Shown here: positions 29,233 to 33,143 of the stretch, piece after piece
Position numbering within the stretch: the first letter of the stretch is position 1
Layout of the letters: each line of letters opens with the position of its first letter
Assembly: GCF_016904885.1 (NCBI RefSeq)
Contig: NZ_JADWYI010000001.1
Location: forward strand, 6,510,001-6,574,000
Source of the DNA: Archangium primigenium
GTDB taxonomy: Bacteria > Myxococcota > Myxococcia > Myxococcales > Myxococcaceae
DNA: 64,000 nt
Direction: 5' to 3'
Notes under the pieces: model-generated
What the model was told of the DNA's origin: nothing
Databases searched by the model: none
What the model saw: the letters and a program-made list of their open reading frames with translations, nothing else
Position numbers and translations under genes: made by a program

Positions 29233-31365
29233 CTACGGCCGCGCGAACACCTCGACCTCGGCCAGGGACAGCGGCGTGGCGTCCTGCATCCGCAGCCGCA
29301 CGAAGCGCGCGTTGCGGTTGACGGCGATCGTCGCCTGGGTGCCCACCGTGCCCGAGTGGGTGGCCGCCACCGTCCACGTCTTGTCGTCGTCGGAGACCTC
29401 GACGGTGAAGTTGCCCAGACGCGCCGAGCAGCAGTCGGTGCGGTTGTAGACCACCACGTCCCCCACCGCGCGCACGGACCTCAGGTCCACCTGCCACCAC
29501 GGCCGGACATCGCCGCTCTCCGCGGTGTGGGAGACCGAGCCGTTGAAGTAGTTGCCGTCCCGCGAGCCATCCACCGCGAGCATGGCCCCGCCGCCGGAGT
29601 GATAGGTCGAGGACTGCCAGGCCTGCTTGCCGGCCGCGAGGTTGCGCTGGGGGAAGACCTGGACCTCGGCGAGGCTGAGCACGCCCGCGCCATTGAGCTG
29701 GACCTTGACGTAGCGCGCGACGCGGTTGACGGGGAGCGTCACATAGCCGCCCGCGGTGCCCGGGTGCACGACGGCCGTCGTCCACGAGGCGCCGTTCTCG
29801 GACACCAGCACGCTGAAGTTGCTCAGGCGATCCGAGCAGCAATCCGTCCGGTTGTGGAGCACCACCTCCCCGATGCGCTGCGCGGACTGCAGGTCGACCT
29901 GCCACCACGGCTGGACGCCGCTGTCCGAGGTGTGGGTGACCGAGCCGTTGTTGAAGGCCCCATCGAGCCGGCCATCCACCGCCCGGGCCGCGTCACCGCC
30001 GTACGCGGTGGACGCCTGGCTCGCGGGCTTGCGCAGGGCCAGGTTGGCGCGCAGGCCGTAGCGCGCGAGGCCGGGCTGGGCCGTGCCGTTCTGATCCCGG
30101 CGCGTCACCTGGAGCGCGTCCTGGGTGAACTGCGCATCCAGGTAGGCGCCATTCTTGGCGGCACCCGACACGAAGGTCGGAATGAACTCCGGGCCGGACA
30201 CGCGGTTGGCGGGCCGGTGGAAGGGGACCTTGTAGTTTTCCGAGGCCTCCAGGTGTTTGTGCCCCGTGAAGATGCCCACGACGTTGTAGGCCGCGATGGC
30301 GTCCCAGTAGGCGGTGCGCTGCGCCTCCGTCCACCACTTCTCGCCGTCCTCGCCGATGGAGAAGGAGTCGAAGCCGTAGTGGTGCATGAGCACCACGGGC
30401 CGCCCCGACGCGCCCACGAACATGGCCAGATCCAACTGCAGGAAGGCGAGGCTGTTGTCGGGCGAGGACTGCGAGAACTGCTCGGGCACCGTGCCGTTGC
30501 CCGGATAGAGGTTGAGCTGCACGAAGTGCACGTCCTGCCAGTCCCAGGAGTAGTGCGGCCCCATGCCGAACGTCTTCACCGTGGAGCGCTTGCGGTCGGC
30601 GATGTCCGAGCGCAGCGCCCCGGGATCCACGCACGCGCTGTCACCGAAGTCGCAGGCCGCCTTCTGCCAGAGGGTGGGCTCGACCACGTCGTGGTTGCCC
30701 AGGCCGTCATAGATGAAGCGCGAGTAGCCGCTCAGGGCGTTCTTGTACCAGCTGAACTCGTCCTTGGTCCGGGTGTTCTGGGTCAGGTCGCCCGCGATCA
30801 GGATGCCGCGCACCTGCTGCCCGCTGGAGCGCAGCTGGTTCACCATGGTGCTCAGCGTCTGATTCGCCTCGGCGTTGGGGGAGCCGTTGTCGTACTGGGG
30901 ATCGGCCGTCGCGAGGAACCGCACGTCGCGCGTCGTGGCCCCAAGCCCATAGGTGTTGGCCGAGCTCACCCGCTGGTGGTTCTTGTCGTACGAGTTGCAG
31001 AAGTAGTTGGGCCCCACGCCCAGGGCGGAGCGATCCTCCTGCTCGATCTGCGCGTAGCCTCCGGCCTGCAAGGACACCACGCAGTTGAAGGAGCCCAGCT
31101 CGATCTGCGCGCTGAGCATGGCGTCCTGCGAACCGGAGGGGTTGCAGCTCGTGTCGCTCCAGTGACAGCAGGCGTTGCCCCCGCCGCCGCCGATGTTCGC
31201 CGAGAAGTTGCCCTGCGACACCCGCGCGTTCGCGGTGCCCCCCGTCTGGTTGTAGATGCAGAACGCCGAGGCGGCGCCGGGCAGCAGGAACATCATCGCC
31301 GAGACCGCGGCGCCCACGCCGCCCTGGACCGAGGCGTTCGACCGCCGGAACTTGAAGGGATTCAT
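29233..31365 (-). CDS. Secreted metallophosphoesterase with two F-type lectin domains
   Basis: A protein of 710 residues. Signal peptide to about residue 34 (...SAMMFLLPGAASA), a Cys-rich segment to residue 130, then a calcineurin-like phosphoesterase: ATADPQY (first metal motif, Gln for the usual His), IAGDLTQN, GLGNHDV, VLMHHYG and FTGHKHLE. Two C-terminal repeats of about 135 residues each (F5/8C-type jelly rolls) carry NRTDCCSDRLSNF and NRTDCCSARLGNF. The adjacent Cys pair and RxDx4R are the F-type lectin signature for L-fucose (vicinal disulfide), with His 27-28 residues before (SVTHTS, SVSHTA). AGGAG stands before ATG 31365. A fucose-targeted secreted phosphohydrolase is the simplest reading. 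Confidence 0.88.
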   Translation of the reverse strand: MNPFKFRRSNASVQGGVGAAVSAMMFLLPGAASAFCIYNQTGGTANARVSQGNFSANIGGGGGNACCHWSDTSCNPSGSQDAMLSAQIELGSFNCVVSLQAGGYAQIEQEDRSALGVGPNYFCNSYDKNHQRVSSANTYGLGATTRDVRFLATADPQYDNGSPNAEANQTLSTMVNQLRSSGQQVRGILIAGDLTQNTRTKDEFSWYKNALSGYSRFIYDGLGNHDVVEPTLWQKAACDFGDSACVDPGALRSDIADRKRSTVKTFGMGPHYSWDWQDVHFVQLNLYPGNGTVPEQFSQSSPDNSLAFLQLDLAMFVGASGRPVVLMHHYGFDSFSIGEDGEKWWTEAQRTAYWDAIAAYNVVGIFTGHKHLEASENYKVPFHRPANRVSGPEFIPTFVSGAAKNGAYLDAQFTQDALQVTRRDQNGTAQPGLARYGLRANLALRKPASQASTAYGGDAARAVDGRLDGAFNNGSVTHTSDSGVQPWWQVDLQSAQRIGEVVLHNRTDCCSDRLSNFSVLVSENGASWTTAVVHPGTAGGYVTLPVNRVARYVKVQLNGAGVLSLAEVQVFPQRNLAAGKQAWQSSTYHSGGGAMLAVDGSRDGNYFNGSVSHTAESGDVRPWWQVDLRSVRAVGDVVVYNRTDCCSARLGNFTVEVSDDDKTWTVAATHSGTVGTQATIAVNRNARFVRLRMQDATPLSLAEVEVFARP

Positions 31366-31492
31366 TCGGGTCTTCTCCTGATTCTTGGGGATGCGGAACT
31401 TCTCGGCTTTCATTCCGAAAGCCGGCTCCCAGGAGATTCACGCCGATTAATTCTGGGTTATCGCCCTCCTGCATTTTCCCGTCGGGAGCGGC

Positions 31493-31541: not shown

Positions 31542-33011
31542 TCACGGGAAGATGCCCTGGCCCGGGGTGAGGACGTTGTCCGGGTCGAACACGCGCTTGA
31601 GGCTGGCGAACTCGAGCCAGCGCACCCCGAAGTGCTCACGCCACTCGGCGGGCGTGCGGGGCCCCTGGCTCACGGGGTAGGCCTTGCCGCCCAGTTGATT
31701 GAGCCGGTCCAGGAAGAGCTGGTTCTTGGCCATCAGCGCCGCCACGTTCTGGGGCGTGCCGGGGTTGGCCGTGCGCAAGAGCGCGAAGAGGAAGGCGTGG
31801 GCGCCCTCGGGCACGCGCACGAAGGGCGCGGTGATCTTGGGTGGCCGGAAGGCGTAGAGCAGCACGGGATCCTGGCCGATCTCCGCCGGGGGCGTGTTGT
31901 CGAGCACGAAGCGCACGAACTCGGCGGCGCACGCCTGGGGCACGAACATGTTGATCCACGGGTGCGGCAGGCCCCAGAGCCCCTGGGCCTTGAGGAAAGC
32001 CACCAGGGGCGCCAGCCGGTTGACGAAGTCGAGGTAGCTCGAGTCCGCCGTCTGGGCCGAGCCCGGCACGAAGGCCAGGCCCGCGAGCAGCGCCGCGTTG
32101 TTGGGCGGCGAGGCCGGGGCGAAGTACTTCACCGCCTCGAGCTGGAAGGTCCGGGTGCCGTCGGCCGCCGTCACCACCGAGCCCTCGACGTAGTCGAAGC
32201 GGCCGTCGTCATCGAGCTTCTTCTGGTCCGCGAGGAAGGCGGGCAGGCTCGTGTACGTGGCCGTGAACGTCCGGGCCTGGGGAGGCACGGACACCAGGCG
32301 CACGCGCGCGCCCACGATGATGCCGAACTGGCCCAGGCCGCCGCGCACCGCGTTGAAGAGCGTGGGGTTGAGCAGCGGCGAGCAGCACACGAGCTCGCCC
32401 CGGCCGGTGACCACCTCCAGTTCCAGCACGTTGTCCACCTGGAGCCCCGAGCGGAACGCCTGGCCGCCGATGCCGCCCACGGACAGGGTGCCGCCGATGC
32501 TCAGCTCCAGGTAGTCCGTGAGCGTGGGCGGGCTCTTGCCCTGGGGCACCGTGGCGGTGAGCAGTTGGATCCACCGCACGCCCGCGTCCACCCAGGCGCT
32601 CGTCGCGCCGATGGAGCGGATGCGCGACAGGCCGGACATGTCGATGACGATGCCGGCGGCCACCTGCGCCTGGCCCAGGGTGGAGTGGCTCTCGTCGTCA
32701 TCGCCCACGCCCCGCGCGCCGGCGATGCGCAGGCAGTTGGCGCGCGCGAAGCGCACCATCTTCACGATGTCCTGCACCGAGCCCGGCACGAGCACCGCCC
32801 AGGGCTTGCGGCTGATGATGTGGCCGTAGTCGTCGGCGGCCTGTGTCCGCGTCGCGTCGTCCAGCAGCAGCTGGCCGTCCAACGTGGGAAGAGGAATGGA
32901 GCCAGACTGCACTTCGGAAGCCCAGCTGCGCGACACGGGGTTGAACGCCGTGACCGCCGCCACCAGGGCTCCCTGCAGCACCGTGCGGCGCGGGAGGAAC
33001 GAGGACGACAT
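31542..33011 (-). CDS. Cytokinin-dehydrogenase-like FAD oxidase, Tat-exported
   Basis: A protein of 489 residues with a Tat signal (SSFLPRRTVLQGALVAAV; the RR pair precedes the hydrophobic run). The flavin-binding half has ARGVGDDDESHSTLGQAQV, GGTLSVGGIGGQAFRSGLQ, VDNVLELEVVTGRGELV and GGLGQFGIIVGARV. The C-terminus EWREHFGVRWLEFASLKRVF then DPDNVLTPGQGIF matches the end of plant cytokinin dehydrogenases very well. CKX enzymes of the BBE/VAO class carry FAD bound through the His of GHS; here that loop reads G-D-D-D-E-S-H-S, longer than the usual GxGHS. Cytokinin or a similar N-alkyl amine is the inferred substrate. Confidence 0.82.
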   Translation of the reverse strand: MSSSFLPRRTVLQGALVAAVTAFNPVSRSWASEVQSGSIPLPTLDGQLLLDDATRTQAADDYGHIISRKPWAVLVPGSVQDIVKMVRFARANCLRIAGARGVGDDDESHSTLGQAQVAAGIVIDMSGLSRIRSIGATSAWVDAGVRWIQLLTATVPQGKSPPTLTDYLELSIGGTLSVGGIGGQAFRSGLQVDNVLELEVVTGRGELVCCSPLLNPTLFNAVRGGLGQFGIIVGARVRLVSVPPQARTFTATYTSLPAFLADQKKLDDDGRFDYVEGSVVTAADGTRTFQLEAVKYFAPASPPNNAALLAGLAFVPGSAQTADSSYLDFVNRLAPLVAFLKAQGLWGLPHPWINMFVPQACAAEFVRFVLDNTPPAEIGQDPVLLYAFRPPKITAPFVRVPEGAHAFLFALLRTANPGTPQNVAALMAKNQLFLDRLNQLGGKAYPVSQGPRTPAEWREHFGVRWLEFASLKRVFDPDNVLTPGQGIFP

Positions 33012-33071
33012 CGGGGGACTGCCTTTCTTGGGGGAGTGCGCCGCCTGCTCGGGGAGCAGGCGGGCGTCCCA

Positions 33072-33109
33072 AGTATAGACCCCGGGGTGATGGCACTGAC
33101 TTGTAGTCA
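33072..33109 (-). promoter_or_regulatory. Promoter -10 box and palindromic operator of the CKX-like gene
   Basis: On the minus strand TATACT occupies 33077-33072, about 60 bases before the start codon. Upstream, TGACTTGTAGTCA (33097-33109) is a perfect TGACT-N3-AGTCA palindrome overlapping the -35 position, where a repressor would block polymerase. The -35 hexamer itself is poor. Confidence 0.45.
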
Positions 33110-33143
33110 ACGCACCTTGTCCCACCCCGATGTCGGGCAGCCG

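What the first reader, a model, noticed from the sequence alone, without database searches (positions are those of the whole stretch)
29233..31365. Secreted phosphoesterase carrying two fucose-lectin domains
Each C-terminal domain shows RTDCC(S)xR with a His about 27 residues before, the F-type lectin site for L-fucose. Linking it to a calcineurin-like enzyme would direct phosphate release to fucosylated surfaces of prey or of the own matrix. The first metal motif has Gln for His, an added oddity.
Basis: partly seen in the sequence, partly recalled or inferred. Interest (0 to 1): 0.65.

Follow-up and report, generated by a model that had tools for sequence, protein, structure and literature searches.

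The report
Secreted phosphoesterase with two fucose-lectin domains
A bacterium, probably a predatory myxobacterium, carries a rare gene for an exported phosphate-cutting enzyme with two sugar-grabbing domains of the eel fucose-lectin type; since this genome shows neither known route for making activated fucose, the enzyme is probably aimed at other organisms' surfaces, a sensible but mostly unsurprising enzyme-plus-lectin fusion.

Summary
The gene lies on the minus strand (window 29233-31365, 710 aa). It encodes a Sec signal peptide, an unclassified all-beta domain, a calcineurin-like phosphoesterase and two F-type lectin domains. Both lectin domains match solved F-type lectins (E 5e-27 and 3e-23) and keep His, Arg-x-Asp, the Cys-Cys pair and the closing Arg. 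The Gln in metal motif I is not a defect: it is kept in all four orthologues and most relatives, and a Gln at the same motif position is functional in ADPRibase-Mn (Q27). Orthologues (about 57-60% identical) turned up in 3 of 194 other genomes of the phylum, with one or two lectin domains and no shared neighbours. The gene's own genome and two of the three other carriers lack GDP-mannose dehydratase (gmd), and no carrier has a fucose-salvage enzyme, GH29 or GH95 fucosidase. That argues against binding to the own matrix and against fucose feeding, and favours foreign fucosylated surfaces. Best reading: a secreted, glycan-anchored, di-metal phosphohydrolase for digesting prey or scavenging phosphate. 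Substrate and fucose binding are untested. Ordinary in kind; the least known part is the N-terminal domain, which has no Pfam family and no clear fold match.

The parts
29233..31365 (-). whole gene, 710 aa plus stop codon
   Evidence: orthologues in three other genomes
31374..31379 (-). AGGAGA, Shine-Dalgarno-like, 8 bases before the ATG at 31365
   Evidence: read from the sequence
31264..31365 (-). Sec-type signal peptide, residues 1-34 (RR n-region, hydrophobic core, ASA cleavage motif)
   Evidence: sequence reading; no signal-peptide predictor was available
30961..31266 (-). N-terminal all-beta domain, residues 34-135 (FCxYN, CChW, CNPSG motifs)
   Evidence: no Pfam family over its cut-off; AF2 pLDDT 93.4; no clear PDB fold
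30076..30930 (-). calcineurin-like metallophosphoesterase domain, about residues 146-430
   Evidence: Pfam PF00149; fold matches Lmo2642, Rv0805, PAP, ADPRibase-Mn, SMPDL3A at Z 18-21
30895..30903 (-). metal motif I, D155-P156-Q157 (Gln in place of the usual His)
   Evidence: aligned with D-T-H of GpdQ
30787..30792 (-). metal motif II, G192-D193
   Evidence: invariant in 12 relatives
30688..30699 (-). metal motif III, G223-N-H-D226
   Evidence: invariant in 12 relatives
30379..30381 (-). metal motif IV, H329
   Evidence: invariant in 12 relatives
30253..30264 (-). metal motif V, G368-H-K-H371
   Evidence: G and first H invariant, second H nearly so
29650..30048 (-). F-type lectin domain 1, residues 440-572
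29827..29850 (-). RTDCCSDR of lectin domain 1 (residues 506-513); its His is residue 478
29242..29646 (-). F-type lectin domain 2
29419..29442 (-). RTDCCSAR of lectin domain 2 (residues 642-649); its His is residue 613

Best explanation
The protein is exported through Sec and acts outside the cell. The tandem F-type lectin domains tether it to fucosylated (or fucose-like) glycans on foreign material such as fungal, algal, protist or bacterial prey surfaces. The di-metal phosphoesterase domain, with Gln157 as one metal ligand, then hydrolyses phosphoesters or phosphoanhydrides there, releasing phosphate or nucleosides during prey digestion or phosphate scavenging. Shown by computation: the domains, intact lectin-site residues, intact metal motifs apart from the Gln swap, conservation in orthologues, absence of gmd and fucose-salvage genes in this genome. 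Inferred: export, binding to fucose, catalysis, and the foreign target.
For: Both lectin domains match F-type lectins of known structure and keep His, Arg-x-Asp, Cys-Cys and the closing Arg in all six domains of four orthologues, although domain 2 is on a fast branch. All metal motifs are conserved in orthologues, and the predicted fold matches active phosphoesterases. Gln in DxQ binds metal 1 in a docking model of ADPRibase-Mn, which is active (PMC4334965). The gene's own genome and carriers G010 and G030 have no gmd above cut-off, and no carrier has a fucose-salvage enzyme, GH29 or GH95. In G010 and G030 the next gene on the same strand encodes a GH18 (chitinase-type) protein, which fits extracellular digestion.
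Against: No binding or activity data. In carrier G150 gmd is present, so a self target is possible there. The GH18 neighbour is seen in one genus only and not in this window. Patchy presence means the function is dispensable. F-type lectins can differ in ligand preference.
Confidence: 0.55

Rival explanations
1. The lectin domains hold the enzyme on the producer's own surface or matrix polysaccharide, making it a matrix-bound phosphatase for nutrient uptake or matrix remodelling.
For: Related F-type lectin domains occur in other secreted proteins of genus g23, whose sampled genomes do encode gmd, including carrier G150.
Against: No gmd above cut-off in this genome, its three genus mates, G010 or G030, and no fucose-salvage enzyme, so L-fucose by known routes is not expected in their own glycans. 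Other fucose-like sugars are not excluded.
Confidence: 0.17
2. It is a phospholipid- or sphingomyelin-directed phosphoesterase that acts on membranes of glycosylated eukaryotic prey, a lectin-aimed membrane-degrading enzyme.
For: Sequence and fold similarity to the SMPDL3/acid sphingomyelinase group; lectin targeting would suit membrane delivery.
Against: SMPDL3 proteins themselves are better known as nucleotide phosphodiesterases (general knowledge); equal or better matches to Rv0805, purple acid phosphatases and others.
Confidence: 0.12
3. The phosphoesterase domain has lost catalysis (Gln for His) and the protein is only an adhesin.
For: One metal ligand differs from the superfamily consensus.
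Against: Gln is fixed in all four orthologues and present in 10 of the 12 aligned sequences; human ADPRibase-Mn with Gln at this motif position is active and loses about 11-fold efficiency on its main substrates when it is changed to His (PMC4334965); every other metal motif is intact.
Confidence: 0.06
4. The C-terminal domains have the F-type fold but bind something other than L-fucose (another sugar or a general surface ligand), so the targeting is different.
For: H to R spacing is 27-29 instead of 24-26, a longer loop after the His; the cation motif of domain 1 ends in Arg rather than N, D or S.
Against: His, Arg, Asp, Cys-Cys and Arg of the fucose site are all kept in six of six domains.
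Confidence: 0.1

Closest known systems
F-type lectin domains (eel agglutinin AAA 1k12; FBP32 3cqo; S. pneumoniae fucolectin-related 2j1r; Sm-hPAF 3le0), listed in CAZy as CBM47 (from memory)
   Same: Sequence match to E 1e-39 with a profile of the six domains, site residues, Cys-Cys in the same place as the first domain of FBP32, tandem arrangement
   Different: Insertion of 1-3 residues after the site His; attached to a phosphoesterase
Calcineurin-like metallophosphoesterases: Lmo2642 (2xmo), Rv0805, purple acid phosphatase, GpdQ, SMPDL3A
   Same: Fold (Z 18-21) and metal motifs GD, GNHD, H, GHxH
   Different: 12-19% identity; motif I is DPQ instead of DxH; extra N- and C-terminal domains; substrate unknown
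[quoted passage not shown]
   Same: Gln at the third position of motif I (D[V/I]Q); fold match Z 19.2, rmsd 3.4, 241 residues aligned
   Different: 16% identity only; ADPRibase-Mn has family-specific regions around the active site that were not looked for here; the lectin and N-terminal domains are extra
Bacterial F-type-lectin fusions to enzymes (Bishnoi et al. 2015, as summarised in PMC5712786)
   Same: F-type lectin domains joined to glycoenzymes, lipases and other enzymes are already reported
   Different: The passages read name no phosphoesterase fusion; the original paper could not be read

Membership tests
F-type lectin domain | sequence similarity to solved F-type lectins | tested here: met
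F-type lectin domain | fucose-site residues His, Arg-x-Asp, closing Arg/Lys | tested here: met
   present in both domains and in orthologues
F-type lectin domain | literal published spacing HX24RXDX4(R/K) | tested here: inconclusive
   spacing is 27 and 28 here, but the solved fucolectin 2j1r itself has 26 (counted on the alignment), so the literal number does not define the family
F-type lectin domain | cation motif h2DGx with x small hydrophilic | tested here: inconclusive
   AVDGR in domain 1 departs, AVDGS in domain 2 fits
F-type lectin domain | binding to L-fucose | not testable with these tools
   needs a glycan array or calorimetry
Calcineurin-like metallophosphoesterase superfamily | Pfam PF00149 above curated cut-off | tested here: met
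   27.9 bits, cut-off 21.5
Calcineurin-like metallophosphoesterase superfamily | motif I written DX[H/X] in PMC4334965 (His usual, other residues allowed) | tested here: met
   DPQ: the Asp is present and the third residue is Gln, as in ADPRibase-Mn
Calcineurin-like metallophosphoesterase superfamily | motifs GD, GNH[D/E], H, GHxH | tested here: met
Calcineurin-like metallophosphoesterase superfamily | fold | tested here: met
   Z 18-21 to solved members; model pLDDT 76, lower in some loops
ADPRibase-Mn-like family | family-specific regions (s2s3, h2, h7h8) and substrate set | not tested
   only motif I and overall fold compared; not claimed as a member
Purple acid phosphatase | Tyr ligand giving the Fe(III) charge transfer | not tested
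   whether Y158 could take the PAP Tyr position was not checked; not claimed as a member

The most novel reading that the evidence does not exclude
A glycan-guided extracellular nucleotide or nucleotide-sugar hydrolase used against fucosylated eukaryotic prey, whose N-terminal beta domain is a new structural or targeting module shared only with a Phycisphaerae phosphoesterase and, weakly, with a few other secreted proteins of related genomes.
Probability: 0.2. Interest if true: 0.5.

Novelty: new variant of a known kind. Interest (0 to 1): 0.33.

Why it matters
It would add a phosphate-releasing enzyme to the set of lectin-aimed bacterial enzymes. The absence of the fucose-making gene gmd in this genome turns 'own or foreign target' into a testable question. 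The DPQ motif also points to a group of secreted Gln-type phosphoesterases in these genomes for which no characterised close relative was found here.

Tried and rejected
Viral contigs: no relative of the enzyme part or of the lectin part. Plasmid records: only partial, under 60% identical matches, none with the full architecture. Pfam on the N-terminal domain: nothing over its cut-off. Fold search of the N-terminal domain: best Z 7.9 (PepT2 extracellular domain, rmsd 2.7, 82 aligned) and 7.6 (AlgF N-terminal domain, rmsd 2.3, 71 aligned), within the range the tool gives for models without a clear match, so not used. An anti-phage phosphoesterase profile (DS9_1, 11.6 bits against a cut-off of 420) was rejected. 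Neighbour-based function was rejected: the flanking FAD-oxidase genes are not shared with orthologues, and in sister genome G001 the nearest homologue of the downstream gene (64% identical) has none of the other window genes around it. The fold search against viral models gave only general phosphoesterase matches. The scan of genome contigs (one genome per species) used six exact 8-residue patterns and is insensitive; it found only 3 distant relatives, and none shows an F-type lectin domain in the frames read. The 2015 survey of F-type lectin architectures is not held, so earlier mention of this fusion cannot be ruled out.

Full report
What is there. The gene is on the minus strand, window 29233-31365, 710 aa. 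The ATG at 31365 has AGGAGA eight bases before it; a second in-frame ATG at 31413 has a poorer upstream site. The product starts with a Sec-type signal peptide ending ASA, followed by FCIYN. No signal-peptide predictor was available, so export is a reading of the sequence.

Lectin domains. Pfam files both C-terminal domains under F5/8-type C. The finer question is settled by solved structures: every PDB sequence found with the whole protein or with domain 2 alone is an F-type lectin, and a profile of the six domains of the four orthologues reaches FBP32 at 1e-39, the pneumococcal fucolectin at 1e-35 and eel agglutinin at 5e-20, with glucanase/chitosanase-type modules far behind at 7e-5. The site residues His, Arg-x-Asp, Cys-Cys and the closing Arg are kept in all six domains. 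The His-to-Arg spacing is 27-29, longer than the published 24 (PMC5712786) and the 26 of 2j1r (counted on the alignment).

Enzyme domain. PF00149 matches above its cut-off. An AF2 model of the N-terminal domain plus enzyme (pLDDT 76) matches Lmo2642 (Z 20.8, rmsd 3.8, 258 aligned), Rv0805 (Z 20), purple acid phosphatases (Z about 20), ADPRibase-Mn 2nxf (Z 19.2, rmsd 3.4, 241 aligned), SMPDL3A (Z about 18) and GpdQ (Z about 18). Metal residues D155, D193, N224, H225, H329, H369 and H371 are invariant in the five closest sequences, and all but H371, which is nearly so, in the wider set of 12. Gln157 takes the place of the His in D-x-H, as the alignment with GpdQ shows. Of the 12 aligned sequences, 10 have Gln (nine DPQ, one DCQ) and two have His. 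In ADPRibase-Mn the same motif position is Gln, which contacts metal 1 in the docking model; changing it to His lowers efficiency 11- to 13-fold on the main substrates (PMC4334965). The oddity is therefore a known functional variant.

N-terminal domain. Residues 34-135 form an all-beta domain predicted with pLDDT 93. No Pfam family reaches its cut-off, and no PDB match rises above the background range. In 195 genomes of the phylum it was found strongly only in the four carriers, and outside in one Phycisphaerae phosphoesterase without lectin domains. Two longer secreted proteins carry a weakly similar start, AYCIWN...ACCNW.

Distribution and evolution. Orthologues about 57-60% identical lie in G010 (two lectin domains), G030 (one) and G150 (one). 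The single domain of G030 groups with domain 1 of G010 and that of G150 with domain 2 of G010, both well supported; the two domains of this window group together with moderate support, and domain 2 is on a long branch whose place is unsure. Lectin copies have thus been gained or lost more than once. Neighbours are not shared: none of the eight flanking window genes tested matches around the orthologues in G010 or G030. In those two genomes, of one genus, the next gene on the same strand encodes a GH18 family protein.

Self or foreign target. Gmd, needed for de novo GDP-L-fucose, is above its cut-off in all seven sampled genomes of genera g23 and g26, including carrier G150, but not in this genome, its three genus mates, or any of the six g8 genomes including carriers G010 and G030. 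The fucose-salvage family PF07959 is absent from all four carriers. GH29 is absent from all 17 genomes and GH95 from all four carriers. With a 98.6% complete assembly, L-fucose in this strain's own glycans by known routes is unlikely, and the protein is not part of a fucose-feeding pathway of the usual kind. A foreign ligand is the simpler reading. Caveats: a small part of the genome may be missing, other routes may exist, and the lectin domains may prefer other sugars.

Verdict. It is a new domain combination of known parts plus one unclassified domain.

Noticed in passing
L011:4250-5734 (-) and L012:4807-6231 (-): Next to the orthologue in two genomes of one genus, same strand, lies a GH18 (chitinase-type) protein with a DUF7910-like stretch in its N-terminal part.
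   Followed up: partly
L059-L068: Other secreted proteins of genus g23 carry one to three F-type lectin domains, several fused to a Vps62 domain.
   Followed up: partly
L007, L015, L016, L018, L026: A wider set of secreted phosphoesterases in related genomes also carries DPQ in metal motif I, with other N-terminal domains (Cys-rich repeats, PPC).
   Followed up: partly
L074:1300-2826, L076:1207-2937: Secreted Cys-rich proteins start with a sequence weakly similar to the N-terminal domain (AYCIWN...ACCNW).
   Followed up: no
window 31542-33125 (-): FAD oxidase with a cytokinin-dehydrogenase-type C-terminal domain (PF09265, E 2e-37).
   Followed up: no
G000-G003, G010, G030, G102-G105 against genera g23 and g26: Gmd splits cleanly by genus: present above cut-off in all sampled g23 and g26 genomes, absent in g1 and g8.
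   Followed up: partly
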